Shown here: positions 3,032-16,992 of the stretch, one piece after another
Layout: every line of letters begins with the position of its first letter
Numbering within the stretch: the stretch's first letter is position 1
Assembly: GCF_028606985.1 (NCBI RefSeq)
Contig: NZ_CP117416.1
Coordinates: forward strand, 5,147,001 to 5,211,000
Origin: Paenibacillus kyungheensis
Lineage (GTDB): Bacteria > Bacillota > Bacilli > Paenibacillales > Paenibacillaceae
Direction: 5' to 3'
DNA length: 64,000 nt
Made by a program: the position numbers and the translations under genes
The notes under the pieces: model-generated
The model's database searches: none
The model's input: the letters and a program-made list of their open reading frames with translations, nothing else
What the model was told of the DNA's origin: nothing

Positions 3032-3643
3032 TTAAAGAGGTCTATTAGTGTCACGTGGATCATGACGTCGTCCTCGAAGACCTAACAATCCAAGAAGACC
3101 TAACAACCCGAGCCATCCCCAATCCATATCATTATCGTCATCATCCATATCGGTAGTCATCGGTGCATCATTTCCAGAAGTTGTTGTAGCCACACCAGTT
3201 GCTCCAGTAGAAGTTGTTCCTGTTGTTCCTGTCGTACTCGTTTCTGTTGTATCGGTACCTGTTACGCCAGTGGAGTCTGTTCCGGTCGTTCCTGTGGCAT
3301 CCGTTCCTGTTACTCCAGTAGAATCTGTTCCGGTCGCATCCGTTCCTGTTACGCCAGTAGAGTCTGTTCCGGTCGTTCCCGTTGCATCCGTTCCTGTTAC
3401 GCCAGTAGAATCTGTTCCGGTCGTTCCTGTAGCATCCGTTCCTGTTACTCCAGTAGAATCTGTTCCTGTTGTTCCCGTTGCATCCGTTCCTGTTACTCCG
3501 GTAGAGTCTGTTCCTGTGCTACTTGTAGTACCTGTGCTTCCTGTTGTTCCAGTAGTTCCTGTTGTCGAAGCGAATGTCGGCGTTGCCCCAACGGTCAATA
3601 CGATTAATAATGAGAGAAAAGTAGTCTGAAATTTTTTCTTCAT
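3032..3643 (-). CDS. Repeat-rich secreted protein with WGxxGxxG C-terminal segment
   Basis: A 203-residue secreted protein of unknown role. After a signal peptide (cleavage near TFA-ST, residue 26) comes a Thr/Gly/Ser/Asp-rich region with six copies of GTDSTGVTGTD. Most copies lie in a 16-residue unit; the fourth lacks three residues. The tail carries an acidic DDDDNDMD patch, then WGWLGLLGLLGLLGLRGRR, a WGxxGxxG-CTERM-like hydrophobic segment followed by arginines, resembling a sorting or anchoring signal. The start has AAGGAGA upstream. The repeats make copy number likely to vary between strains. A cell-envelope location is inferred. Confidence 0.75.
   Translation of the reverse strand: MKKKFQTTFLSLLIVLTVGATPTFASTTGTTGTTGSTGTTSSTGTDSTGVTGTDATGTTGTDSTGVTGTDATGTTGTDSTGVTGTDATGTTGTDSTGVTGTDATGTDSTGVTGTDATGTTGTDSTGVTGTDTTETSTTGTTGTTSTGATGVATTTSGNDAPMTTDMDDDDNDMDWGWLGLLGLLGLLGLRGRRHDPRDTNRPL
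3250..3515 (-). repeat. In-frame tandem repeat, about 48-bp unit, six copies
   Basis: The repeats encode GTDSTGVTGTD-A/T-T with or without GTT. Copies differ mainly at synonymous third positions, so the peptide is more conserved than the DNA. One copy is 9 bp shorter, as expected from slippage or recombination within the array. Confidence 0.85.
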
Positions 3644-8733: not shown

Positions 8734-9024
8734 TTACTGTTCTACTTTGTGCAAACGGAACGCTTCACGAGAATCGACCAGTGAAGCAATATTTTCCCGA
8801 TACGATTTGAAATGAGGCGTATTCATATGAAATTCAAGCGCAGCTTCATCTTCCCATATTTCATAAAATACAAACACACCCGGTTCAACCGATTCATGTA
8901 ACGTATATTGAATACAACCACTTTCACTACGAGAAGGCTCCAACATTTTGATCAATTCTGCTTTCAACTGCTCTTCATGCCCTGCTTTTGCTTTCAAAAT
9001 CGCATTATTCACAAGATTCGTCAT
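8734..9024 (-). CDS. Antibiotic biosynthesis monooxygenase (ABM) domain protein
   Basis: A 96-residue dimeric ferredoxin-like-fold protein of the putative quinol monooxygenase group (YgiN-like). AGHEEQLKAELIKML, SGCIQYTLHES, FVFYEIWEDEAALEFHMNTPHFK are the diagnostic stretches. The ATG at 9024 has AAGGAGAA upstream; the ORF can be opened 17 codons further but that extension lacks a ribosome site and is not conserved in type. It probably acts in quinone or reactive-carbonyl metabolism, but only the fold family is supported. Confidence 0.85.
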   Translation of the reverse strand: MTNLVNNAILKAKAGHEEQLKAELIKMLEPSRSESGCIQYTLHESVEPGVFVFYEIWEDEAALEFHMNTPHFKSYRENIASLVDSREAFRLHKVEQ

Positions 9025-9113
9025 GGATCTATTCTCCTTCTGGCGGATAAGTTTGGTGGTGCTATGTATTATCATACCCGTTTTGAAGGAAGATCAAAAA
9101 TCGATACTTTAAA

Positions 9114-9596
9114 TTACAACATATCCCTAGCTTCGGATAGAAGATCGTGTTTCTCCTCTAAACGCTCAATCTCATCTTTTAATCTCTCTAGATATTCTTG
9201 TTTTGTTCCTTCCGATATATTTTCGATGATAGATTCAATTAATAAAAAAGACTTTCTACTTACTTCAAAATTACCTTCAATTAAAAAACCGAAAAGCATA
9301 TCAATATGATTAGAATAATCAAACGGTTCTAAAGAAGCTAATAAAGTCCCTCTATACCCTAGCGTTTTAGGATCTTTTAATACATGTACTATAGGTTCAA
9401 CCGCATCTGAATTTCCGATATCACGTAAAGCAAGAGCAATTGAATTTCTCAATACATGACTTTTGGTGAGTTGTAATTGTTCAATAAGATAAGGAACAGC
9501 TTCATTCAGCCTTTTCTCTCCTATTTCTTCTATCATACATATGGCTTCATCGATATGATTTGTATTTATTTTTTCTTTTAATATAGAAATTAACAA
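9114..9596 (-). CDS. HEAT-repeat protein (putative immunity protein)
   Basis: A 160-residue all-helical protein. Internal repeats of the type AVPYLIEQLQLTKSHVLRNSIALALRDIGNSDAVEPIVHVLKD are HEAT/PBS-lyase-like helix pairs. It has no signal peptide and no catalytic motif. It is the last gene of the A+T-rich island of immunity-type genes, and HEAT-repeat proteins of this size recur in polymorphic-toxin immunity loci, so a toxin-neutralising scaffold role is inferred. Only 16 bp separate it from the upstream unknown gene, suggesting cotranscription. Confidence 0.65.
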   Translation of the reverse strand: MLISILKEKINTNHIDEAICMIEEIGEKRLNEAVPYLIEQLQLTKSHVLRNSIALALRDIGNSDAVEPIVHVLKDPKTLGYRGTLLASLEPFDYSNHIDMLFGFLIEGNFEVSRKSFLLIESIIENISEGTKQEYLERLKDEIERLEEKHDLLSEARDML

Positions 9597-9612
9597 TAGC
9601 CTTTCTCCTATT

Positions 9613-10305
9613 TTATATAATCGTAATGCTGTTATAATAAATATCTTGTTTATTAAGGCATAAATTTAATCGGTATGTAGATATACCTTCTATTATTTTT
9701 TTCAGATGTTGTAAGCGTGTCTTTTCATCGTTGACACTTATCGTTGTAATTCCGCCTAGATTTCCGATAGATATAATCTTATTTTGTTGATGTCTTAATG
9801 CATCGTGAAGATGTAATACAGTTACGACTGTCTCATGTAAAATACAATGACTTCCAGTCTGAATAACGAAAGAGGATACCCAACGTTCAAGTTGATCTAC
9901 TTCTAATACAGACAAATACTGATCATCTAGCACTTTATTAGCGAGAAAATATATTTCTTCTACATATTTAATCTTTGCTTCAAGTACGTTCTCTTGGACT
10001 ATCATTACTTCTATAAAATTTCTTTTTCCAACTAAAAATTCATATATTTCATTAAGCTCTTCTATATAAATAGATTGTTTGCTTTCTGTATAACCCCATT
10101 CCCAATCATCTAACAAAGGATCGTTAATATCTCGAAGTCTCAACAAAATATCTAGTATTAATCGGTATCTCAAAAATGTATTGTACCCTTGCTTATACAT
10201 GAAATGATGTTTCTCATCTGCCCAACGAGATAATGATTCTATTTCAGTGAGATTTTGAATAGTGTATTTTACTTTGATATTAAGTTCATTTATCATTTTT
10301 TCCAT
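9613..10305 (-). CDS. Hypothetical helical protein in immunity island
   Basis: A protein of 230 residues that I do not recognise. It appears largely alpha-helical, with no membrane segment, signal peptide or recognisable catalytic motif. The ATG at 10305 has GAGG six bases upstream, while a GTG at 10317 would overlap that motif. It is followed after 16 bp by the HEAT-repeat gene, probably in one transcript. Its place in the immunity-gene array suggests an immunity or toxin-related role, but nothing in the sequence proves that. Confidence 0.55.
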   Translation of the reverse strand: MEKMINELNIKVKYTIQNLTEIESLSRWADEKHHFMYKQGYNTFLRYRLILDILLRLRDINDPLLDDWEWGYTESKQSIYIEELNEIYEFLVGKRNFIEVMIVQENVLEAKIKYVEEIYFLANKVLDDQYLSVLEVDQLERWVSSFVIQTGSHCILHETVVTVLHLHDALRHQQNKIISIGNLGGITTISVNDEKTRLQHLKKIIEGISTYRLNLCLNKQDIYYNSITII

Positions 10306-10484
10306 CAAGTACCTCACTAATTCCTAAAATTTATTCTATATCTATCCATATACGTTATCAGCTTGTAGCTTAATAAGATCAATTAGTTAAATATATAAAA
10401 AAGACTTTAAAAATAGCTATATGACTTACAACATACTCATAAAGAACTAATATATGTAACGTGTTTATCTTTATCGCTCTATTC

Positions 10485-10919
10485 CTATTCATTACCTTTC
10501 TCTGATTCTTCTTTAATCATTTCAAATAATTCCTCAACAGTCAATCGTACAGAATCTGTATATTCCCACGAGAAATAAGGTTTAAGAGATATAGCAACCT
10601 CTTCCCAGGTTTCGCCTTGATGCTTTGATAAGATCTGATTAATCGTTTCTGTAATCACTTCAAAGTCTAACTTATTTACAATAAAATGTTGTGCACCTAG
10701 AATAATTTGTTTTCCATCTTCCAATTTTTTGGCTAATGCTTTGGGTGTGATGATAACAAAATCGAAATTATCTTCACCTATCGAATCTTCTTCTCCTATA
10801 CCCGCCGTTCCGAATAAACAAAAATCGTCCCCAATATCTTCAGTTTCTGTAAATTGTAGCTTTCCATAAATATTAGGATTCCCTGTGATAGTAAGGTCTT
10901 TCAGTACGGGTTGGATCAA
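10485..10919 (-). CDS. Imm8 family immunity protein (copy A)
   Basis: A 144-residue protein with the Imm8 pattern: DDFCLFGTAGIGEEDSIGEDNFDF, the TPKALAKKLEDGKQIILGAQHFIV block, and GETWEEVAISLKPYFSWEY near the end. Imm8 proteins neutralise toxin tips of the polymorphic toxin systems. The start is a TTG with GAAGGAG eleven bases upstream. It is roughly 80% identical to copy C (15356-15790) over its whole length, with differences crowded between residues 54 and 82. The flank upstream of the start is also shared with copy C, so a whole cassette was duplicated. Confidence 0.8.
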   Translation of the reverse strand: MIQPVLKDLTITGNPNIYGKLQFTETEDIGDDFCLFGTAGIGEEDSIGEDNFDFVIITPKALAKKLEDGKQIILGAQHFIVNKLDFEVITETINQILSKHQGETWEEVAISLKPYFSWEYTDSVRLTVEELFEMIKEESEKGNE

Positions 10920-10976
10920 ATGCTATTTCACTCCTTCAAATATAATTATACTATCTGTACCATTTATTATAATCCT

Positions 10977-11258
10977 CTAATCGAAATGAATAGCTATTAA
11001 CAACTGCTTTACTTTAGGCAATAGAATCTCTAATTTGGAGCTATCAAACCACTCTATGTCTTTCAATAGTTCAACAGCTAATTCAAATTGCTCATAAGCA
11101 TAGACGATATCTTCTCGCTGATAAATATCATTTCCATGTATGAGATCGTCTATGATTTCAAAGCAAGTTACTTCGATATCATCAACCTTCATATCTTCAA
11201 ATAATTCTCTGCAATCTTTCAATTCTTGTATTTCATCTGTAGAGAATAATATTTCCAT
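10977..11258 (-). CDS. Small acidic hypothetical protein (putative immunity protein)
   Basis: A 93-residue, strongly acidic helical protein with many Asp/Glu residues and no recognisable domain. The start is supported by AAGGAGA seven bases upstream. It lies 57 bp before Imm8 copy A in the same orientation. Small acidic proteins in such arrays often mimic nucleic acid or bind basic toxin domains; that role is inferred from context alone. Confidence 0.5.
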   Translation of the reverse strand: MEILFSTDEIQELKDCRELFEDMKVDDIEVTCFEIIDDLIHGNDIYQREDIVYAYEQFELAVELLKDIEWFDSSKLEILLPKVKQLLIAIHFD

Positions 11259-11529
11259 AACAATTCTCCTTCTTTAAACCATCTAAATAGCTTCTATTTT
11301 AGATCAAAAAAAGCAAACTAATTATGAATGTACCTAAACATAATCATCTGAGGATGTTACTTGATAGGGTTATTTGTGAATCAAAATGTAAGTATTACCT
11401 TGCTTAACATACTATGCTACTTCGTAATCAAGAAAATCTTGAAAGACACAAAGCTAATCAATATCATATTTAATATGTTAAAATCTAATTCTTACTTTTC
11501 TACAAATTCAGATGAAAGACTATAAAAAT

Positions 11530-11748
11530 TTAGGTATCCATCTCCCATCTAAAATATTTGGAGAGCTCCTTCATTGCTACATCATAATCAGCATTCTGAC
11601 ATTTTGAGATAATCTGATTTACTGTAGATTCTATATGTTTTATATTAAAATCATTCATGATTAAATATCCTCTACCTATTTCGATATCGATTTGAAATAT
11701 TTCCAATTTCTCATCTTTTGTTAAGAATTATTGTACTTTATTTTTCAT
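11530..11748 (-). pseudogene. Truncated Imm8 fragment (copy of 13427-13583)
   Basis: Bases 11532-11688 match 13427-13583 at all but one of 157 positions (G versus A at the GGAGAGCTCC/GGAAAGCTCC step). They encode the last third of the Imm8 protein (GRGYLIMNDFNIKHIES...YFRWEMD). Upstream the frame continues into unrelated codons (KDEKLEIFQ) and meets a TAA six codons after an ATG at 11748. The piece therefore has the end of one immunity gene joined to the start of another and an internal stop. It is almost certainly non-functional. Confidence 0.8.
11532..11688. repeat. 157-bp direct repeat, copy 1
   Basis: Identical to 13427-13583 except for one base, in the same orientation, 1.9 kb apart. 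Both ends coincide with abrupt loss of similarity: one base inside the Imm8 stop codon, and in mid-gene at GATATC. Confidence 0.9.
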
Positions 11749-11840
11749 GTTCATTCCTAAATTTTATAAACTGATTTCGAGCTTCTTTCAGGAAATTTTG
11801 GAGTACTGCATCAACGTACGATTCTGTAATATGACCTACG
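11738..11840 (-). pseudogene. Start-less ORF tail, likely cassette remnant
   Basis: An open frame without a start codon reads VGHITESYVDAVL...FIKFRNEHEK and stops at 11738. Its composition is protein-like (amphipathic, charged C-terminus) and it overlaps the ATG of the next fragment. It is probably the 3' end of a lost toxin or immunity gene. The family is not recognised. Confidence 0.35.
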
Positions 11841-11844
11841 AATA

Positions 11845-12177
11845 TTACTCAAATTGAATATTTATCATTTTGATTCCTTCTAACATAAAAATACAGTTTT
11901 CAGTTGTATCAGAGGCTAGAAGTTCAGTTACAGGGTCGCCAAATCGTATCCATTTGTTTGCAATACATTCCAAAATTCTATTTAGTTTCGATTCAGTTTG
12001 ATTTTCCGAAATTAACATTGTAATTTCTACAATATATACTTCGTCCATCTTCCAATAAGGTTCTATCTTCTTAATTTCTTTATTCTCTAGTATAGGGGAA
12101 AATATTCTAAAAACTTTTTCTAAAACTACACGCGCTTCAGTTTCACTCTTTGCATTTACAAAAAGTCGAACAAACAT
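11845..12177 (-). CDS. Hypothetical protein, putative immunity partner of Ntox17 tip
   Basis: A protein of 110 residues with alternating strand/helix pattern and no recognised domain. It starts 11 bp after the stop of the orphan Ntox17 toxin tip, with AAGGTGAT upstream of the ATG. In polymorphic toxin loci the gene immediately downstream of a toxin tip is normally its immunity gene, so this is the best candidate to neutralise the Ntox17 RNase-like domain. That pairing is inferred from position only. Confidence 0.5.
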   Translation of the reverse strand: MFVRLFVNAKSETEARVVLEKVFRIFSPILENKEIKKIEPYWKMDEVYIVEITMLISENQTESKLNRILECIANKWIRFGDPVTELLASDTTENCIFMLEGIKMINIQFE

Positions 12178-12188
12178 ACTCGATCACC

Positions 12189-12371
12189 TTATTTATGAGT
12201 TATTTTACCATCTAATGATACATTTAAATGCGAACCATCTCTATTAAAATGCCCCAATTGATTTTTTCCTGTTCTTGAAAGTTGGACATCCCATTCAAAG
12301 GATTGTCCTTGAGTTCTAGATGGTCCTTTAGTCCAAAGATTTCCAAACCTATCTTTATAACCACCATTCAT
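12189..12371 (-). CDS. Orphan polymorphic toxin type 17 (Ntox17) C-terminal tip
   Basis: 60 residues (69 if the ATG at 12398 is used). The whole length is the Ntox17 toxin domain core: YKDRFGNLWTKGPSRTQGQ, EWDVQLSRTGKNQLGH and RDGSHLNVSLDG, which is the signature of predicted RNase tips of polymorphic toxins. The N-terminal delivery parts are missing. The ATG at 12371 overlaps the stop of the upstream gene in an ATGA arrangement; there is no good ribosome site. Orphan tips like this serve as donors for tip replacement by recombination. Expression is doubtful. Confidence 0.7.
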   Translation of the reverse strand: MNGGYKDRFGNLWTKGPSRTQGQSFEWDVQLSRTGKNQLGHFNRDGSHLNVSLDGKITHK

Positions 12372-12748
12372 CTTAGGTAAGGGTTCAGATGGAGACATTC
12401 AGCACTGAATAGTTCTTGTTTGGTTAACATTTTTCCCAATATACAGCCTGTGCTATGATGTTCACCCAGCAGTATGATTTCGATAACCCTATTTTCAGGA
12501 TAAATTTTCGCTTTGAGAATTTCACTACTGTTTATCAAAAACGAAAGTGGCTCTATTGTAAATGACTCTACATCAGTGAAAGATAATACGCCTTCCTGCA
12601 TTTCGGATTCAGATTCATCATAATCAGCTTGCTTCCATTGGCATAATTCCAATGTGATAAGAACCTTTTTCTCAGACGGTAAATATTCAATATTCTCTAC
12701 TACACTATCATGCAGATCATAAATCGCTAATAATTCGCTTATTTTAAT
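12368..12748 (-). CDS. Immunity-type hypothetical protein with apparent ATT start
   Basis: The open frame can be read from an ATT at 12748: (M)KISELLAIYDLHDSVVENI... down to ...CLHLNPYLR, 126 residues. The DLHDS...TLELCQW opening and strand-rich body look like a small immunity protein, but the family is not certain. AGGAGG lies eight bases before the ATT, whereas no ATG, GTG or TTG is in frame until a TTG 33 codons later, inside the conserved fold. Either ATT is the start or the start codon has mutated from ATG. The 3' end overlaps the Ntox17 tip. It follows a decayed toxin tail (12766-12960). Confidence 0.5.
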   Translation of the reverse strand: MKISELLAIYDLHDSVVENIEYLPSEKKVLITLELCQWKQADYDESESEMQEGVLSFTDVESFTIEPLSFLINSSEILKAKIYPENRVIEIILLGEHHSTGCILGKMLTKQELFSAECLHLNPYLR

Positions 12749-12765
12749 TTCAATCTCCTCCTGAA

Positions 12766-12960
12766 TTAAGGTAAGATATAGGACATTTTTGAACCTTTTG
12801 CAATAACATCAAATCTTGTTCTCATTTCAGACTCAGGGTTAATATACTCTCTAGAAATTGTATTTGATTATTATCTGCATTTGCTTTCGAATCTGTGCCA
12901 GCTAGGTCATATGTATACATTTCTTTGGGTACATTGGAACAAACCAATACACCTTAGTAA
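12766..12960 (-). pseudogene. Frameshifted toxin-tail remnant
   Basis: Two overlapping frames can be joined. The first reads VPKEMYTYDLAG...NQIQFLESI, then stops. The second begins at the same point and reads NPESEMRTRFDVIAKGSKM...ILP before TAA at 12766. The RTRFDVI element and position directly before an immunity-type gene suggest the C-terminal tip of a polymorphic toxin broken by a frameshift. The next gene's AGGAGG overlaps this tail's end, as in an original toxin-immunity pair. Confidence 0.4.
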
Positions 12961-12966
12961 ATAACT

Positions 12967-13251
12967 TTATTTCTTTAGGCTATTGAGTTTTCTCTTAATT
13001 TCTAAGACTTCTCTTTTTACTTCTTGTTCAGTATAGTACATATTTTGAAAAACAAAATCTTTTTCATATGGAGAAAACCTTGTAGTAACCGAACTCAACT
13101 CTAAGAATAATTTATTTTCTACTTCATTTAAATCTTCATAATCAGTTTCTGTATTGAATATGATTGTAAATTGATCACAGAAAGTTTTTGTATCGTAATT
13201 ACCTTTGATATACTCATTAATTAGGTAATAGAGCTGCTCTTTTGATGTCAT
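12967..13251 (-). CDS. Colicin-D-immunity-like protein
   Basis: 94 residues, predicted as a helical bundle: YYLINEYIKGNYDTKTFCDQFTIIFN, then LNEVENKLFLELSSVTTRFSPYEKDF and a C-terminal charged helix. The spacing of the first two helices and the F..YE..... element resemble bacterial self-protective colicin-D-like immunity proteins. AGGAGG sits well placed before the ATG. It directly follows a decayed ORF tail at 13274-13424 that may be its lost toxin. The family match is moderate. Confidence 0.55.
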   Translation of the reverse strand: MTSKEQLYYLINEYIKGNYDTKTFCDQFTIIFNTETDYEDLNEVENKLFLELSSVTTRFSPYEKDFVFQNMYYTEQEVKREVLEIKRKLNSLKK

Positions 13252-13273
13252 AAGCGATTCCTCCTTTATTCAT

Positions 13274-13424
13274 TAGTGATTCATTGTAATTGTTGAAGAT
13301 CTATCTGTTTCAACTATATGTGCTACTGCTAATTTTTTAAAATCAATTCTGTTATTCCTATTTATCATGCTATAAAACTCTGATTCGTACTTTTTTCTAA
13401 TTTTAGATACAATAATATTAAATT
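13274..13424 (-). pseudogene. Start-less toxin-tail remnant
   Basis: An open frame running out of the preceding Imm8 gene in another phase reads KKYESEFYSMINRNNRIDF, then KKLAVAHIVETDRSSTITMNH and TAA at 13274. It has no start of its own. The composition and the conserved-looking end, directly ahead of the colicin-D-immunity-like gene, suggest a toxin C-terminus cut off by the recombination that made the 157-bp repeat, whose edge lies at 13427. Confidence 0.4.
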
Positions 13425-13757
13425 TCAGGTATCCATCTCCCATCTAAAATATTTGGAAAGCTCCTTCATTGCTACATCATAATCAGCATTCTGACATTTT
13501 GAGATAATCTGATTTACTGTAGATTCTATATGTTTTATATTAAAATCATTCATGATTAAATATCCTCTACCTATTTCGATATCACTATCCTGTATAATTC
13601 TTGCTAATCTTTTAGGACTCACCACCTCAAAACTAAACATATCTCCTGAACCTAAAATATCTTCACATCCAATATCAACTTGAAAACAAACGTAAAAATC
13701 GTCTACATCTTCACCCCAATCTTCAAAATCTTGAGTTAATACTTTGATTGTTAGCAT
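13425..13757 (-). CDS. Imm8 family immunity protein (copy B)
   Basis: A 110-residue Imm8: DDFYVCFQVDIGCEDILGSGDMFSFEVVSPKRL is the family core, followed by GRGYLIMNDFNIKHIESTVNQII and YFRWEMD at the C-terminus, aligning with copies A and C. Its sequence is much more divergent from these two than they are from each other. The ATG has AAGGAG eight bases upstream. Its last 157 bp recur almost perfectly at 11532-11688. Target toxin unknown. Confidence 0.8.
   Translation of the reverse strand: MLTIKVLTQDFEDWGEDVDDFYVCFQVDIGCEDILGSGDMFSFEVVSPKRLARIIQDSDIEIGRGYLIMNDFNIKHIESTVNQIISKCQNADYDVAMKELSKYFRWEMDT
13427..13583. repeat. 157-bp direct repeat, copy 2 (intact Imm8 end)
   Basis: See copy 1 at 11532-11688. 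This copy sits in the intact Imm8 gene and is the likely donor. Confidence 0.9.
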
Positions 13758-13798
13758 TCATCCCACTCCTTCCGATTCAATCGCTACTGGATGGGAGT

Positions 13799-13838
13799 AA
13801 AAAAAGAGCTTGGAGAATTAGCTCCCTCAAGTTCTTAG
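13799..13838 (-). terminator. Cassette terminator 1
   Basis: On the minus strand a stem of GAACTTG with CAAGCTC and inner GGAG/CTCC is followed by T7. It starts two bases after the stop of the DUF7336 gene. Confidence 0.75.
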
Positions 13839-13840
13839 AA

Positions 13841-14083
13841 TTATTCAGTGATTCGTTTATCATCTAGAACAAACGAACTTACGAATCCTTCTTCCCAATT
13901 GTCCTCATCTAATTCATATCCATCAATAAAAAACTCATTCGGATAATTTCGAAATCCTGGAATTTTCTTGTATTTTATTATAGTTGATTCGGCTATTTCC
14001 CTAGAAGAGTAGATGCCGATTATTTTGGGATTTTCCACTCCATTAACTTCATAGCTATGTTGCAATAAAAATACCGTTATCAT
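13841..14083 (-). CDS. DUF7336-type small protein (putative immunity)
   Basis: An 80-residue protein with the pattern MITVFLLQHSYEVNG...KIIGIYSSREIAESTI, PGFRNYPNEFFIDGYELDEDNWEEGF, typical of the DUF7336 group that is frequently found among immunity genes. GGAGGTGA precedes the ATG. It has its own terminator immediately after the stop. Biochemical role unknown; neutralising a toxin is inferred from context. Confidence 0.65.
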   Translation of the reverse strand: MITVFLLQHSYEVNGVENPKIIGIYSSREIAESTIIKYKKIPGFRNYPNEFFIDGYELDEDNWEEGFVSSFVLDDKRITE

Positions 14084-14181
14084 ATTTAATCACCTCCAAA
14101 ATCAAGATTATTCGAACCCTCTATCTTGAGGAGTAAGTTGTTTGGTTCGTACTGCGTGACTCATTCGATATTAGGTAGGAA

Positions 14182-14223
14182 TAAAGAAAAGACTTTGAAA
14201 GATTGTTGTCCTCAAGGTCGAAG
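14182..14223 (-). terminator. Cassette terminator 2
   Basis: Minus-strand stem GACCTTGA / TCAAAGTC (one mismatch) followed by TTTTCTTT; 28 bases downstream of the 14252-14584 gene. Confidence 0.6.
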
Positions 14224-14251
14224 TTTGATAAATCTCTCTTAGAAATGTTCA

Positions 14252-14584
14252 TTAAATCCTTTCCTCTTCCATAGTAAAATAGTCATCATCCATTTTTCCA
14301 TCTAAAGTAAATAGCAAGCGATATAATCCTATTCTTTTTCCATTATAAATTATTGGAACATAGGATATGACATGATTATAATTGCATTCTGGATAATTAC
14401 CTAGCATCAATGCTATTTGTGTTATTTTCACATCAAGATTATCTCTATTAAAATTCTTAAAAAAATAGTTGAATTCATCAGGATCTTCTGTTTGATAATT
14501 ATTCAAGTTCAACCAAAATCCTTGTAACGTTCTTTTTTCAATTTCTTGTTCAACTATCCATTGTTTAAATTCATCGATAGGCAT
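14252..14584 (-). CDS. Hypothetical protein (putative immunity)
   Basis: A 110-residue protein of unrecognised family with a helical N-terminus (DEFKQWIVEQEIEKRTLQGFWLNLNN) and a strand-rich C-terminus ending LDGKMDDDYFTMEEE. The ending resembles that of the neighbouring 14853-15191 protein (IDGEFSDEYFDTY), so the two may be distant relatives. GGGGTGG lies four bases before the ATG. It is followed by its own terminator. Confidence 0.5.
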   Translation of the reverse strand: MPIDEFKQWIVEQEIEKRTLQGFWLNLNNYQTEDPDEFNYFFKNFNRDNLDVKITQIALMLGNYPECNYNHVISYVPIIYNGKRIGLYRLLFTLDGKMDDDYFTMEEERI

Positions 14585-14802
14585 TCAACCACCCCAGTCT
14601 AATGTTTTCTTTTGGCAAACAAATTAAATAATACTAGAAAATGCTACTTTCTTTTCACCCTCTCTATCGAAAAAAAGTGTTTTACTATTCTACAGTTGCG
14701 ATTCATTTTTGAAAAACTATAATAAAGTGAAGATAACAAAAATAGGTCAATCATGATAATATCCACGTAATCAACTCATTAAACGGAATAGTGCTATTTG
14801 GG

Positions 14803-14841
14803 TAAAAAAAGACCTTAAAGAAAATAATCTCCAAGATCAGA
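14803..14841 (-). terminator. Cassette terminator 3
   Basis: Minus-strand stem GATCTT / AAGGTC flanked by T7, 12 bases after the stop of the 14853-15191 gene. It resembles the other cassette terminators. Confidence 0.65.
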
Positions 14842-14852
14842 CAGACTATCTT

Positions 14853-15191
14853 TTAATATGTATCAAAGTATTCATCTGAGAACTCACCATCAATATTATA
14901 ATCAACATGATAGTAGAAAAGTTGTATTCCCGTTTTGGGATGAACCAAGTCAAAACAAATCCTAAAATAAGGAAACTCTCTATCAAAGCTATTTACAAAT
15001 ATACTTACATATCTATATTGTATTTTTAAATCTGAATAGCTTAAGTCTTTTGGCAAACTCATCTCCTTATCTTTTAAAAAATTGTTCGAGCATTTACGTA
15101 CAAGTCCTTCAAGTATTGCTTGGGTAGAATCCTTCAATTTTTCGAAGTCATAAATGAGATTAAAAGTGTTTTCTATTGACTTCAAGTCCAT
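14853..15191 (-). CDS. Hypothetical protein (putative immunity)
   Basis: About 112 residues: a helical first half (KSIENTFNLIYDFEKLKDSTQAIL) and a beta-rich second half with repeated aromatic residues (YRYVSIFVNSFDREFPYFRICFDL), ending IDGEFSDEYFDTY. I do not recognise the family. The ATG at 15191 or a GTG at 15203 could start it; neither has an ideal ribosome site. Role inferred only from its place in the array and from the shared ending with the 14252-14584 gene. Confidence 0.5.
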   Translation of the reverse strand: MDLKSIENTFNLIYDFEKLKDSTQAILEGLVRKCSNNFLKDKEMSLPKDLSYSDLKIQYRYVSIFVNSFDREFPYFRICFDLVHPKTGIQLFYYHVDYNIDGEFSDEYFDTY

Positions 15192-15270
15192 TCTTCTCAC
15201 CACTCTCTATTTGCTATTTCCCACTGGTCATATAATCAAATATCATAGCACCATTATTACACGAGTATTT

Positions 15271-15306
15271 AAAAAACCCAGAAGAGCATAAATACTCATC
15301 TGGATT
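15271..15306 (-). terminator. Cassette terminator 4
   Basis: Minus-strand AATCCAGA-GAG / CTC-TCTGGGTT stem followed by T6, 50 bases after Imm8 copy C. Confidence 0.75.
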
Positions 15307-15355
15307 AACTGAAAAAACTATATTCAATACAATTATTTCTAAATGTTAATTCATA

Positions 15356-15790
15356 TTATTCATTATCTTTCTCAGATTCTTCTTTAATCATTGCAAAGAA
15401 TTCCTCAGCATTCAAGTGTACAGAATCTGTATACTCCCACGAAAAATAAGGATTAAGAGATATAGCAACCGCTTCCCATGTTTCACCTTGATGCTTTAAT
15501 AAGATCTGATTAATCGTTTCAGTAATCACTTCAAAATCTAACTTATCTACAATAAAAATTCCTTTACCTATAATAATTTGAGTTCCGTTCCTCAGTTGTC
15601 TTTCTAATTCTTTTGGAGTCATAATAGTAAAATCAAAATTATCTTCACCAATCGAATCTTCTGTCCCTATACATGCTGTTCCAGATAAGTAAAAGTCGTC
15701 CCCAATATCTTCTGTTTCTGTAAATTGTAGCTTTCCATGAATATTAGGATTCCCTGTGATGATAAGGTCTTTCAGTACGGGTTGGATCAA
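15356..15790 (-). CDS. Imm8 family immunity protein (copy C)
   Basis: A 144-residue close paralogue of copy A at 10485-10919. The first 53 residues and the last half are nearly the same (GKLQFTETEDIGDDF, DKLDFEVITETINQIL, GETWEAVAISLNPYFSWEY), while the stretch around residues 54-82 is markedly different. That middle part lies where Imm8 proteins vary between relatives, so it may set toxin specificity. The start is TTG with GAAGGAG eleven bases upstream, identical to copy A. A decayed toxin tail precedes it. Confidence 0.8.
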   Translation of the reverse strand: MIQPVLKDLIITGNPNIHGKLQFTETEDIGDDFYLSGTACIGTEDSIGEDNFDFTIMTPKELERQLRNGTQIIIGKGIFIVDKLDFEVITETINQILLKHQGETWEAVAISLNPYFSWEYTDSVHLNAEEFFAMIKEESEKDNE

Positions 15791-15811
15791 ATGCTAATTC
15801 ACTCCTTCAAA

Positions 15812-15904
15812 TTATGATGAAACTGCTGTACCGTTTATTGTAGTTGTATAATCAACGTTTTTTGGGATTTCGTTTAATCTACATTGATCAAGCAAACAAT
15901 TCAT
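15812..15904 (-). pseudogene. Toxin-tail remnant ahead of Imm8 copy C
   Basis: A 30-codon frame ending NEIPKNVDYTTTINGTAVSS and TAA. The last part and the following GAAGGAG are also recognisable, in degenerate form, upstream of Imm8 copy A (10920-10971). This is consistent with a former toxin tip whose immunity gene was Imm8. Confidence 0.35.
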
Positions 15905-15921
15905 TCTTTAATATTTGGGAT

Positions 15922-15955
15922 AAAAAATCTTGAAGATTTGCGTCTCCAAGATCAA
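15922..15955 (-). terminator. Cassette terminator 5
   Basis: Minus-strand ATCTTGGAG / CTTCAAGAT stem (one mismatch) followed by T6, close behind the stop of the 15961-16266 gene. Confidence 0.75.
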
Positions 15956-15960
15956 GATAT

Positions 15961-16266
15961 TCAATCACCTGCAATATGTATAGCTTTGACATTTGCACCA
16001 CTTAAAGCTTGGAGCAAACGATCTAACGACGAATGATGCATGCAGTCAATAAATGTACGTATTTGCCTCAGATCTTCTACAAAGCATGAGAGTTCATATA
16101 GATTAAGGTAAATATTAGTTTTGTAATAATCTTTAACTTTCTTTAAATAGCTATAACTACTCCAATTGGATGTGTTCGCAAATATAGCATCATGCAAATT
16201 ATTTGGCATTTCTATTAGTCCTATTCTGACTTTTCCTTCATCAAATAATACAATATCTAGTCCCAT
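15961..16266 (-). CDS. Hypothetical protein (putative immunity)
   Basis: A 101-residue protein starting MGLDIVLFDEGKVRIGLIEMP. The ATG at 16266 follows a perfect AGGAGG by four bases, so a longer reading from 16311 is unlikely. MGLDIVLF openings followed by a helical region with paired aromatic residues occur in several uncharacterised small proteins of toxin-immunity clusters. Family not named with confidence. It has its own terminator. Confidence 0.5.
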   Translation of the reverse strand: MGLDIVLFDEGKVRIGLIEMPNNLHDAIFANTSNWSSYSYLKKVKDYYKTNIYLNLYELSCFVEDLRQIRTFIDCMHHSSLDRLLQALSGANVKAIHIAGD

Positions 16267-16444
16267 GGCTCCTCCTAACAATAGTTTTAACCCTAATCTC
16301 TTTGCTCGCAATTGGACTTTGAGAATAAATTCTTTTTAAAACGAAAATCCTTTATCTGCTAATGTAACATTATTTTGAGTTTTAGCTATAAACATAATAA
16401 GTATTAGAGAGAACGTTCTGCTTCTAATAACAGCAGATATAGAC

Positions 16445-16478
16445 AAAAAAGACCTTAAGATGGATTCCCTAAAATTAT
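16445..16478 (-). terminator. Weak cassette terminator 6
   Basis: A6-GACCTTAAGATGG...CCCTAAAATT beginning 11 bases past the barstar stop. It has the same A6-GACCTT edge as terminator 3, but its stem is imperfect. Confidence 0.35.
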
Positions 16479-16488
16479 GAGTTGTTTC

Positions 16489-16992
16489 TTAAATGATTAC
16501 TAGATCAATTCCTAGCTCTTGAAACTTATTTATAACTTTTTGTGCATTACCTTCTGTACTATGGAAAATAATTTTAAAAGGAATTGGAGATGTTTTCATC
16601 GCTCCAAAATCTCTATCCTGTTCCCATTCCATAATAGTATTCTTCATTATATTTAAGAACGTCACTAGACTTTCCATGTTTAACTCTAAAAGAGCCTCTG
16701 AATTGCTAATGAATAACACATAACTCTCAGCATTTAACCAACTAAAATCATTTATGCACTCGTCAAAAGCATTCCAATTCTCTCCGAAATACCAGGGAAA
16801 CTGAAACACCGCAGAAAACTCATTAAATAAATTTTCAGTTGTATTACATTTTGTTCCTCTAACCAGTCTAGCTATCCATTGTTCATTAACCCTTCTCAAA
16901 TCCCATAGTAGGTTTGTAAACTCGGATAAATCACCTTTTTTGATATAAAAATAAGGTTGACCTAAAGTTAGATCTATATTGTTATTAATCAT
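16489..16992 (-). CDS. Barstar-family ribonuclease inhibitor
   Basis: A 167-residue protein with a barstar fold core: FNEFSAVFQFPWYFGENWNAFDECINDFSWL is the diagnostic helix-loop that inserts into the active site of barnase-type RNases, including the acidic residues (FDEC, DFSW). A C-terminal strand (SPIPFKIIFHS) completes the fold. It would act in the cytosol as an immunity protein against an RNase toxin. No barnase gene is in the window, so it either defends against rivals or has lost its partner. It is the first gene of the minus-strand array. Confidence 0.85.
   Translation of the reverse strand: MINNNIDLTLGQPYFYIKKGDLSEFTNLLWDLRRVNEQWIARLVRGTKCNTTENLFNEFSAVFQFPWYFGENWNAFDECINDFSWLNAESYVLFISNSEALLELNMESLVTFLNIMKNTIMEWEQDRDFGAMKTSPIPFKIIFHSTEGNAQKVINKFQELGIDLVII

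What the first reader, a model, noticed from the sequence alone, without database searches (positions are those of the whole stretch)
9114..16992. Orphan immunity-gene island without any full-length toxin
Twelve or more short minus-strand genes in 7.9 kb include three Imm8, a barstar, a colicin-D-immunity-like, a DUF7336, a HEAT-repeat protein and several unrecognised ORFs. There is visibly higher A+T than the flanks and no toxin longer than a tip fragment. Imm8, barstar and DUF7336 are established families of polymorphic-toxin loci. I infer a stockpile of immunity cassettes that protects against relatives' toxins or feeds tip exchange. The unnamed members (10977, 11845, 14252, 14853, 15961, 9613) are candidate new immunity families.
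Basis: partly seen in the sequence, partly recalled or inferred. Interest (0 to 1): 0.78.

Follow-up and report, generated by a model that had tools for sequence, protein, structure and literature searches.

The report
Orphan immunity genes with toxin scars
A 7.9-kb stretch of a bacterial chromosome carries fifteen small genes, most of them predicted to be antidotes to neighbours' toxins, with only short leftovers of toxin genes in front of several of them; it likely shields the cell from rivals and adds several new predicted antidote families to a known kind of locus.

Summary
In detail: 15 minus-strand ORFs in 7.9 kb at 30.6% GC (39-40% around), Imm8 x3 plus an Imm8 fragment, barstar, colicin-type immunity, DUF7336, and no toxin but a 69-aa Ntox17 end piece. 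The immunity reading is supported and sharpened. Five of the six unnamed ORFs have a relative directly behind a toxin elsewhere in the family: 14252 and 14853 at many places, 15961, 11845 and 10977 at one place each. Four keep a toxin remnant upstream: scars before 14853, 14252 and 15961, and the Ntox17 piece before 11845. A Rhs-linker relic also remains. The sister species P. nuruki has an island at the same site with another gene order and other scar end points, so toxins were likely lost at least partly independently. Intact shared genes show purifying selection (dN/dS 0.12-0.43); a truncated one shows none (0.72). In the complete own genome, Rhs toxins lie elsewhere with non-matching neighbours; LXG and PT-HINT are absent. 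Best filed as a heterogeneous polyimmunity locus (immunity islet), a kind already described, likely built by toxin loss with immunity genes kept. Protection is inferred. 9613 and the HEAT gene remain without a toxin partner.

The parts
9114..9596 (-). HEAT-repeat protein, 160 aa; relatives lie in or near toxin/immunity arrays; no toxin partner shown
   Evidence: dN/dS 0.21 to sister
9613..10302 (-). unassigned ORF, 229-234 aa; no toxin partner found
   Evidence: nothing in Pfam/NCBIfam; 3 homologues; 2 of 344 genomes; dN/dS 0.18
10421..10500 (-). relic: 5' end of a DUF2247/Imm38 gene that is intact in the sister species
   Evidence: 85% over 80 nt; intact gene 123 bits
10485..10919 (-). Imm8 immunity gene (85% DNA identity over 300 nt to 15356 copy)
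   Evidence: 68.1 bits
10977..11258 (-). candidate immunity gene; one distant relative lies 10 nt behind a 1700-aa HINT toxin
   Evidence: dN/dS 0.25
11530..11727 (-). truncated Imm8 copy (3' half)
11771..11836 (-). relic of the linker behind the Rhs core of a lost toxin
   Evidence: best hit of the window to a linker HMM of 9 sequences, E 4e-4, next E 2.6
11845..12177 (-). candidate immunity gene for Ntox17
   Evidence: directly behind the Ntox17 piece here and, as a 37% relative, 25 nt behind an intact Ntox17 toxin in L210
12189..12398 (-). Ntox17 toxin end piece (profile 27-98 of 98), no toxin body
   Evidence: 86.6 bits; only Ntox17 in 16 genus genomes
12399..12741 (-). truncated gene (12368 ORF), homologous to the sister's 15893 gene; homology to the sister stops shortly before the Ntox17 piece
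   Evidence: dN/dS 0.72, no constraint detected
12967..13251 (-). Colicin_immun family gene
   Evidence: 26.7 bits, cut-off 22
13425..13757 (-). Imm8 immunity gene
   Evidence: 71.8 bits
13841..14083 (-). DUF7336 gene; a relative (48%) lies in a HINT toxin array in another species
   Evidence: 47 bits
14252..14584 (-). new candidate immunity family
   Evidence: 11 of 29 places elsewhere lie about 14-42 nt behind a homologous toxin tip; dN/dS 0.12
14600..14638 (-). scar: 3' end of the 14252 toxin tip
   Evidence: stretch -54 to +59 85% identical to toxin end and immunity start in G001
14853..15194 (-). new candidate immunity family
   Evidence: relatives lie about 10-18 nt behind a tip in 8 of 10 other genomes (one of the 8 tips is partial); dN/dS 0.18
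15214..15258 (-). scar: last 14 codons and stop of the 14853 toxin tip
   Evidence: upstream 65 nt identical at 60 of 65 sites to L188; E 2e-5
15356..15790 (-). Imm8 immunity gene
   Evidence: 64.8 bits
15961..16266 (-). new candidate immunity family
   Evidence: 80% relative directly behind a 1415-aa HINT toxin in P. vietnamensis N4; model pLDDT 89.5; dN/dS 0.43
16302..16326 (-). decayed scar of the 15961 toxin's 3' end
   Evidence: stretch -60 to +58 79% identical to toxin end and immunity start in L196; longer scar in sister
16489..16992 (-). Barstar family gene
   Evidence: 68.2 bits
17023..17094 (-). relic: 3' end of a DUF2247/Imm38 gene
   Evidence: 82% over 72 nt

Best explanation
This is an island of predicted immunity genes (a heterogeneous polyimmunity locus) in which several genes still carry, just upstream, short scars of the 3' end of toxin genes, and which likely protects the cell against toxins of neighbouring relatives. 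Shown: the families, toxin-linked relatives of five of the six unnamed ORFs in other genomes, the scars, the reshuffled island at the same site in P. nuruki, and purifying selection on the intact shared genes. Inferred: toxin-immunity modules of Rhs/HINT toxins entered this site one after another; deletions then took away the toxin bodies and tips, while the immunity genes were kept because relatives still deliver those toxins; unneeded ones (truncated Imm8, Imm38, the 12368 gene) decay. Untested: that any of these proteins binds or neutralises its toxin.
For: Families. Toxin partners: 14252 relatives behind toxins or tips in L167 (87% identical), L168, L182, L185; 14853 relatives in L187, L188, L190, L191, L193; 15961 in L196; 11845 behind an intact Ntox17 toxin in L210; 10977 behind a 1700-aa HINT toxin in L111. 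Tip HMM: 8 of 10 other genomes for 14853 (one search lists 10; misses G331, G082), 11 of 29 places for 14252 among the 30 best loci. The HMM was built from 10 of these 19 tips, so 9 are independent of it. Scars; Rhs-linker relic. Sister island at the same site: with a PT-HINT piece (46.5 bits). Orphan state: own genome 0 PT-HINT, 0 LXG, Ntox17 only here; Rhs toxins at three other loci, whose ORFs match no island gene except one weak Imm8-like hit, E 8e-3. Selection: dN/dS 0.12-0.43 for six intact genes, p 1e-8 to 0.011.
Against: A scan with 1004 ORF ends from the fetched loci gave no convincing scar before barstar, DUF7336, Colicin_immun, 10977, 9613 or HEAT (toxin-linked close relatives of most were not in hand). 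Before two Imm8 genes 59-71 nt resemble the region before an Imm8 relative in L185 (70-72% including the gene start), but that stretch is not shown to be a toxin end. 18 of 29 places of the 14252 family show no such tip. For three families only one place is toxin-linked: 15961 in L196 but not in L198 or L194; 11845 in L210 but not in L209, L211 or L212; 10977 in L111 but not in L213 or L214. 9613 and HEAT lack a toxin partner. dN/dS covers the whole divergence, including time when a toxin may still have been present. Other toxin classes were not searched in the own genome.
Confidence: 0.78

Rival explanations
1. A graveyard: the immunity genes are passive leftovers of displaced toxin modules and give no present benefit.
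For: Truncated Imm8, two Imm38 relics, truncated 12368 (dN/dS 0.72) and toxin scars show continuing decay.
Against: Six intact shared genes are under purifying selection; but part of that selection may predate toxin loss.
Confidence: 0.2
2. A cassette reservoir: immunity genes (with tip remnants) recombine into the Rhs toxin loci elsewhere in the genome.
For: The same genome has Rhs toxin genes at three other loci, one with several Rhs pieces and small genes in a row.
Against: No island gene matches those loci beyond a weak Imm8-like hit, E 8e-3; the tip remnants here are short.
Confidence: 0.1
3. Unrelated small genes of a decayed mobile element; the immunity look is chance.
For: AT-rich; eight of 15 ORFs are under every Pfam cut-off.
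Against: Six ORFs are over cut-off in immunity or toxin families and DUF7336 recurs in a toxin array; five more have toxin-linked relatives. No integrase or phage family among the Pfam hits over cut-off of the 15 island ORFs or the three flank genes scanned; the wider flanks were not scanned.
Confidence: 0.02

Closest known systems
Heterogeneous polyimmunity loci (Zhang et al. 2012, PMC3482391, passages seen)
   Same: Same-strand array of many unrelated immunity families, varying between close relatives, without a working toxin; soil bacilli incl. P. polymyxa are named there as having excess immunity genes.
   Different: That text says such loci are never interrupted by toxin genes or cassettes; this one keeps a 69-aa tip piece and several toxin scars. 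It also says that several such loci adjoin recombinase genes; none was seen among the island ORFs and three flank genes scanned.
S. Typhi immunity islet SAIDI-1 (PMC7400221, abstract and passages seen)
   Same: Chromosomal islet of orphan immunity genes (8 of 14 ORFs) against toxins absent from the genome, with degraded Rhs remnants, replaced by other genes in a sister lineage.
   Different: T6SS/CDI toxins in a Gram-negative; here Rhs/HINT toxins in a relative of P. nuruki, with toxin-end scars tied to individual genes.
V. cholerae T6SS immunity arrays by sequential effector displacement (PMC5361080, passages seen)
   Same: Old immunity genes kept while effectors are lost; the shifted 3' end of an effector is described there as well.
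   Different: Those arrays sit behind a resident effector in a T6SS cluster; here no toxin heads the array.
Recombinase-associated orphan immunity arrays (rAID) of Bacteroidales (PMC12247911, abstract seen)
   Same: Orphan immunity arrays; that abstract reports that divergent orphans bind and protect.
   Different: No recombinase seen here; that abstract concerns SUKH-domain orphans against T6SS effectors, and no SUKH family was hit here.

Membership tests
[quoted passage not shown]
   Imm8 x3, barstar, Colicin_immun plus toxin-linked new families, all minus strand
Heterogeneous polyimmunity locus | no complete toxin gene within | tested here: met
   longest toxin piece 69 aa
Heterogeneous polyimmunity locus | never interrupted by toxin cassettes (as worded in PMC3482391) | tested here: inconclusive
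   no complete cassette, but an Ntox17 end piece and scars are present
Heterogeneous polyimmunity locus | varies between close relatives | tested here: met
   different gene set and order in P. nuruki at the same site
Heterogeneous polyimmunity locus | short intergenic distances, possibly one transcript | tested here: inconclusive
   gaps of about 10 to several hundred bases; 2 terminator-like sites, 1.9 expected in shuffles
Heterogeneous polyimmunity locus | neutralises toxins | not testable with these tools
   needs co-expression
Orphan immunity islet | cognate toxins absent from the genome | tested here: inconclusive
   no PT-HINT or LXG, Ntox17 only as the island piece, ORFs at the Rhs loci do not match; other toxin classes not searched
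Orphan immunity islet | homologues next to toxins in other genomes | tested here: met
   5 of 6 unnamed ORFs, three of them at one place only

The most novel reading that the evidence does not exclude
A fixed chromosomal site that repeatedly takes in Rhs/HINT toxin-immunity modules and sheds the toxin while keeping the antidote, independently in sister species, leaving datable toxin-end scars; it brings at least four immunity families without a Pfam model, two of them paired with one toxin-tip family that has no name yet.
Probability: 0.4. Interest if true: 0.62.

Novelty: new member of a known kind. Interest (0 to 1): 0.5.

Why it matters
The orphan immunity islets and displaced arrays that I read about in some detail are in Gram-negatives with T6SS, with shorter notes on T7SS orphans in firmicutes. 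This one belongs to Rhs/HINT toxins in a Paenibacillus relative and keeps fragments that identify which toxin several of the antidotes once belonged to, so the history can be read gene by gene. It gives likely toxin partners to immunity families without a Pfam model, and a partner candidate for Ntox17. The two sister islands make the question of whether orphans are kept for protection or merely linger directly testable.

Tried and rejected
Rejected or without result: NCBIfam gave nothing over cut-off for the unnamed ORFs; PADLOC gave only weak hits, the best E 6e-4 on the HEAT protein. Cassette-plus-terminator architecture: 2 terminator-like sites, 1.9 expected in shuffles. Homology of 14252 and 14853: BLASTP E 0.009 over 23 residues, hhalign probability 23%, E 9e-4, so only suggestive, although their toxin tips align (31-37% identity across the two groups). 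Toxin-tip activity: in 10 toxin ends and 10 tips alone nothing useful besides PT-HINT (with other Hint-type models) and Ntox17; one tip is weakly like Gp49/RelE (15.3 bits, cut-off 23.9); no PDB sequence match. 'RelE-like' is therefore not claimed. Structures: 15961 (pLDDT 89.5) and 14853 (88.7) had no Foldseek match at E <= 0.001. The best VIA-align Z for 15961 was 6.5 (DMP12, rmsd 3.4, 91 aligned), then YfbM 6.4 (3.8, 97) and a CdiI 5.5 (3.3, 85); for 14853 6.9 (a designed cystatin fold, 3.1, 72). All lie in the range that may mean only a common arrangement. Plasmid searches with Imm8 and Colicin_immun found 2 distant records each. VOC-flank loci of 10 other congeners hold none of the island genes; in 8 of them the VOC gene is the only flank gene matched, in L040 and L041 a relative of methyltransferase 6577 (46%, 58%) lies about 10-11 kb on, as in the window, so these two may be the same region.

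Not followed: contexts of barstar and Colicin_immun in other genomes; a search for other toxin classes in the own genome; the strain Paenibacillus sp. SORGH_AS306, which holds a 94% relative of 15961.
Full report
OBSERVATION. The window lies at 5,147,001-5,211,000 of a 5.26-Mb single-contig genome. Fifteen minus-strand ORFs of 60 aa or more fill 9114-16992. Seven are over a Pfam cut-off: three Imm8, Ntox17, Colicin_immun, DUF7336 and Barstar. HEAT_2 is just below. GC is 0.306 against 0.394/0.395, and none of 162 overlapping stretches of that length elsewhere in the window is below 0.368.

SISTER ISLAND. Of the 15 other genomes of the genus held, I compared the VOC-flank locus in 11. One, G006 (Paenibacillus nuruki TI45-13ar by its contig), has an island at the same place, with flanking blocks on both sides conserved (76-88% DNA). 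Shared: 10977, 14252, 14853, 15961, 12368, 9613, HEAT and a Colicin_immun fragment. The order differs (14252-14853-15961 against 15961-14853-14252, all in one orientation). The P. nuruki island lacks barstar, Imm8, DUF7336, Ntox17 and 11845 and has a surface protein with SLH domains, other small genes, an intact Imm38 and a PT-HINT piece (46.5 bits). The other 10 loci hold no island genes; in two of them (L040, L041) a relative of the 6577 methyltransferase lies about 10-11 kb from VOC as here, so these may be the same region without the island.

TOXIN PARTNERS. 14252 relatives (91 of 394 genomes of the family, own included) and 14853 relatives (12 of 394) often lie directly behind toxins: for 14252 in L167 (87% identical, toxin frame of 1761 aa, open at the locus end), L168 twice, L182 and L185; for 14853 in L187 (91%), L188 (88%), L190, L191 and L193. 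Their tips belong to one unnamed family (alignment A2, 10 tips). With an HMM of A2, a tip ends about 10-18 nt before the immunity gene in 8 of 10 other genomes for 14853 (one search lists 10; G331 and G082 lack it; one of the 8 tips, L133, is partial) and about 14-42 nt before it in 11 of 29 places for 14252, among the 30 best loci without G000 and G006. Ten of these 19 tips made the HMM; 9 are independent of it. A 15961 relative (80%) follows a 1415-aa HINT toxin in P. vietnamensis N4; relatives in L198 and L194 do not directly follow one. An 11845 relative (37%) follows a toxin frame of 1857 aa that ends in Ntox17 (L210), as 11845 follows the Ntox17 piece here; in L209 (69%), L211 and L212 no intact toxin is directly upstream. 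A distant 10977 relative (29%, E 3e-7) starts 10 nt behind a 1700-aa HINT toxin; those in L213 and L214 do not directly follow a recognised toxin. DUF7336, HEAT and Imm38 relatives lie in HINT-bearing loci of other species. 9613 has no partner; it was found in 2 of 344 genomes, own included.

SCARS. The 65 nt before 14853 match the end of its toxin tip in L188 at 60 of 65 sites; the last 14 codons are legible (E 2e-5). Before 14252, 54 nt align to the end of the G001 toxin, 85% over the stretch that includes the gene start. Before 15961 about 25 nt of a decayed end remain; P. nuruki keeps a longer, frameshifted remnant. The Ntox17 piece is the longest. A piece of the linker behind the Rhs core survives at 11771-11836: E 4e-4, next best in the window 2.6 (HMM of 9 linkers). 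In P. nuruki a linker piece (E 3.5e-7) abuts the stop-codon region before 14853, whereas the window keeps 14 tip codons and no linker there. If that linker belonged to the 14853 toxin, neither junction can come from the other by further loss, and the two deletions are independent. Support for this is limited: the linker was found in 2 of 12 toxin frames tested, one of them (L189) a 14853-type toxin. For 15961 P. nuruki keeps more, for 14252 the window does. No convincing scar was found before the other intact genes.

ORPHAN STATE. The own genome has no PT-HINT (12 of 16 genus genomes do), no LXG (the B. subtilis control rings), and Ntox17 only here. RHS repeats mark toxins at three other loci; compared with the ORFs there, the island genes give only one weak Imm8-like hit, E 8e-3. 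Other toxin classes were not searched.

SELECTION AND EXCHANGE. Window against P. nuruki: dN/dS 0.25 (10977), 0.12 (14252), 0.18 (14853), 0.43 (15961), 0.18 (9613), 0.21 (HEAT), and 0.72 for truncated 12368. Eight flank genes give 0.02-0.10, ABM 0.05, and 17200 0.21. Fisher p for constraint on rounded counts is 3e-5, 1e-8, 3e-4, 0.011, 1e-8, 1e-4 and 0.29, in the same order. Synonymous differences of 14853, 15961, 9613, HEAT, 12368 and the neighbouring ABM gene (0.14-0.27 per site) are below those of the eight flank genes (0.455; p 2e-3 to 6e-11), but not for 10977 and 14252 (p 0.26, 0.08). This fits exchange of parts of the island after the species split; AT-rich codon use could lower it too, but ABM lies in DNA of ordinary GC.

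WHAT IS KNOWN. PMC3482391 (passages) defines polyimmunity loci and proposes back-up protection. PMC5361080 (passages) gives the displacement model with retained effector ends. PMC7400221 (abstract, passages) describes an orphan immunity islet with Rhs remnants. PMC9484751 (abstract and outline) shows recombination among immunity paralogues in firmicutes, and PMC10327511 (passages) orphan immunities in Listeria. PMC12247911 (abstract and outline) reports that orphans can protect. PMC5576092 (passages) added nothing. Seven searches listed no paper whose title is about this locus; most listed papers were not opened. So the locus is a new member of a known kind; the immunity families with partners and the gene-by-gene scars are what it adds.

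VERDICT. Observation confirmed, interpretation supported and made specific. Origin by toxin loss is well supported for four genes and inferred for the rest; protection is inferred.

Noticed in passing
L035 6141-9920 (P. nuruki): A 1259-aa surface protein with three SLH domains and Ig-like domains sits at the head of the sister island, where the window has the barstar end; no toxin domain hit on it.
   Followed up: no
window 8734-9075; L167 9322-9612: The ABM gene beside the island has low synonymous divergence like several island genes, and a 92% homologue lies about 3.7 kb behind a toxin plus 14252 relative in G001: it may travel with the island.
   Followed up: partly
L229, L230, L231 (own genome 0.30, 0.76 and 4.81 Mb): Three Rhs toxin loci, one with several Rhs pieces and small genes in a row.
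   Followed up: partly
L035 11536-12138; L217 3180-3773: Another unnamed gene of the sister island has a 57% relative overlapping the end of a HINT toxin in G176: a further candidate immunity family. The genes at L035 13720 and 14483 have a relative directly behind a large toxin-like ORF in L213.
   Followed up: partly
window 3032-3643: A 203-aa protein made largely of TGTTGTDSTGV-type repeats.
   Followed up: no
L158, L133, L147: Broken or partial tips in front of 14252/14853 relatives in other species: toxin decay beside a kept immunity gene may be common in this family.
   Followed up: no
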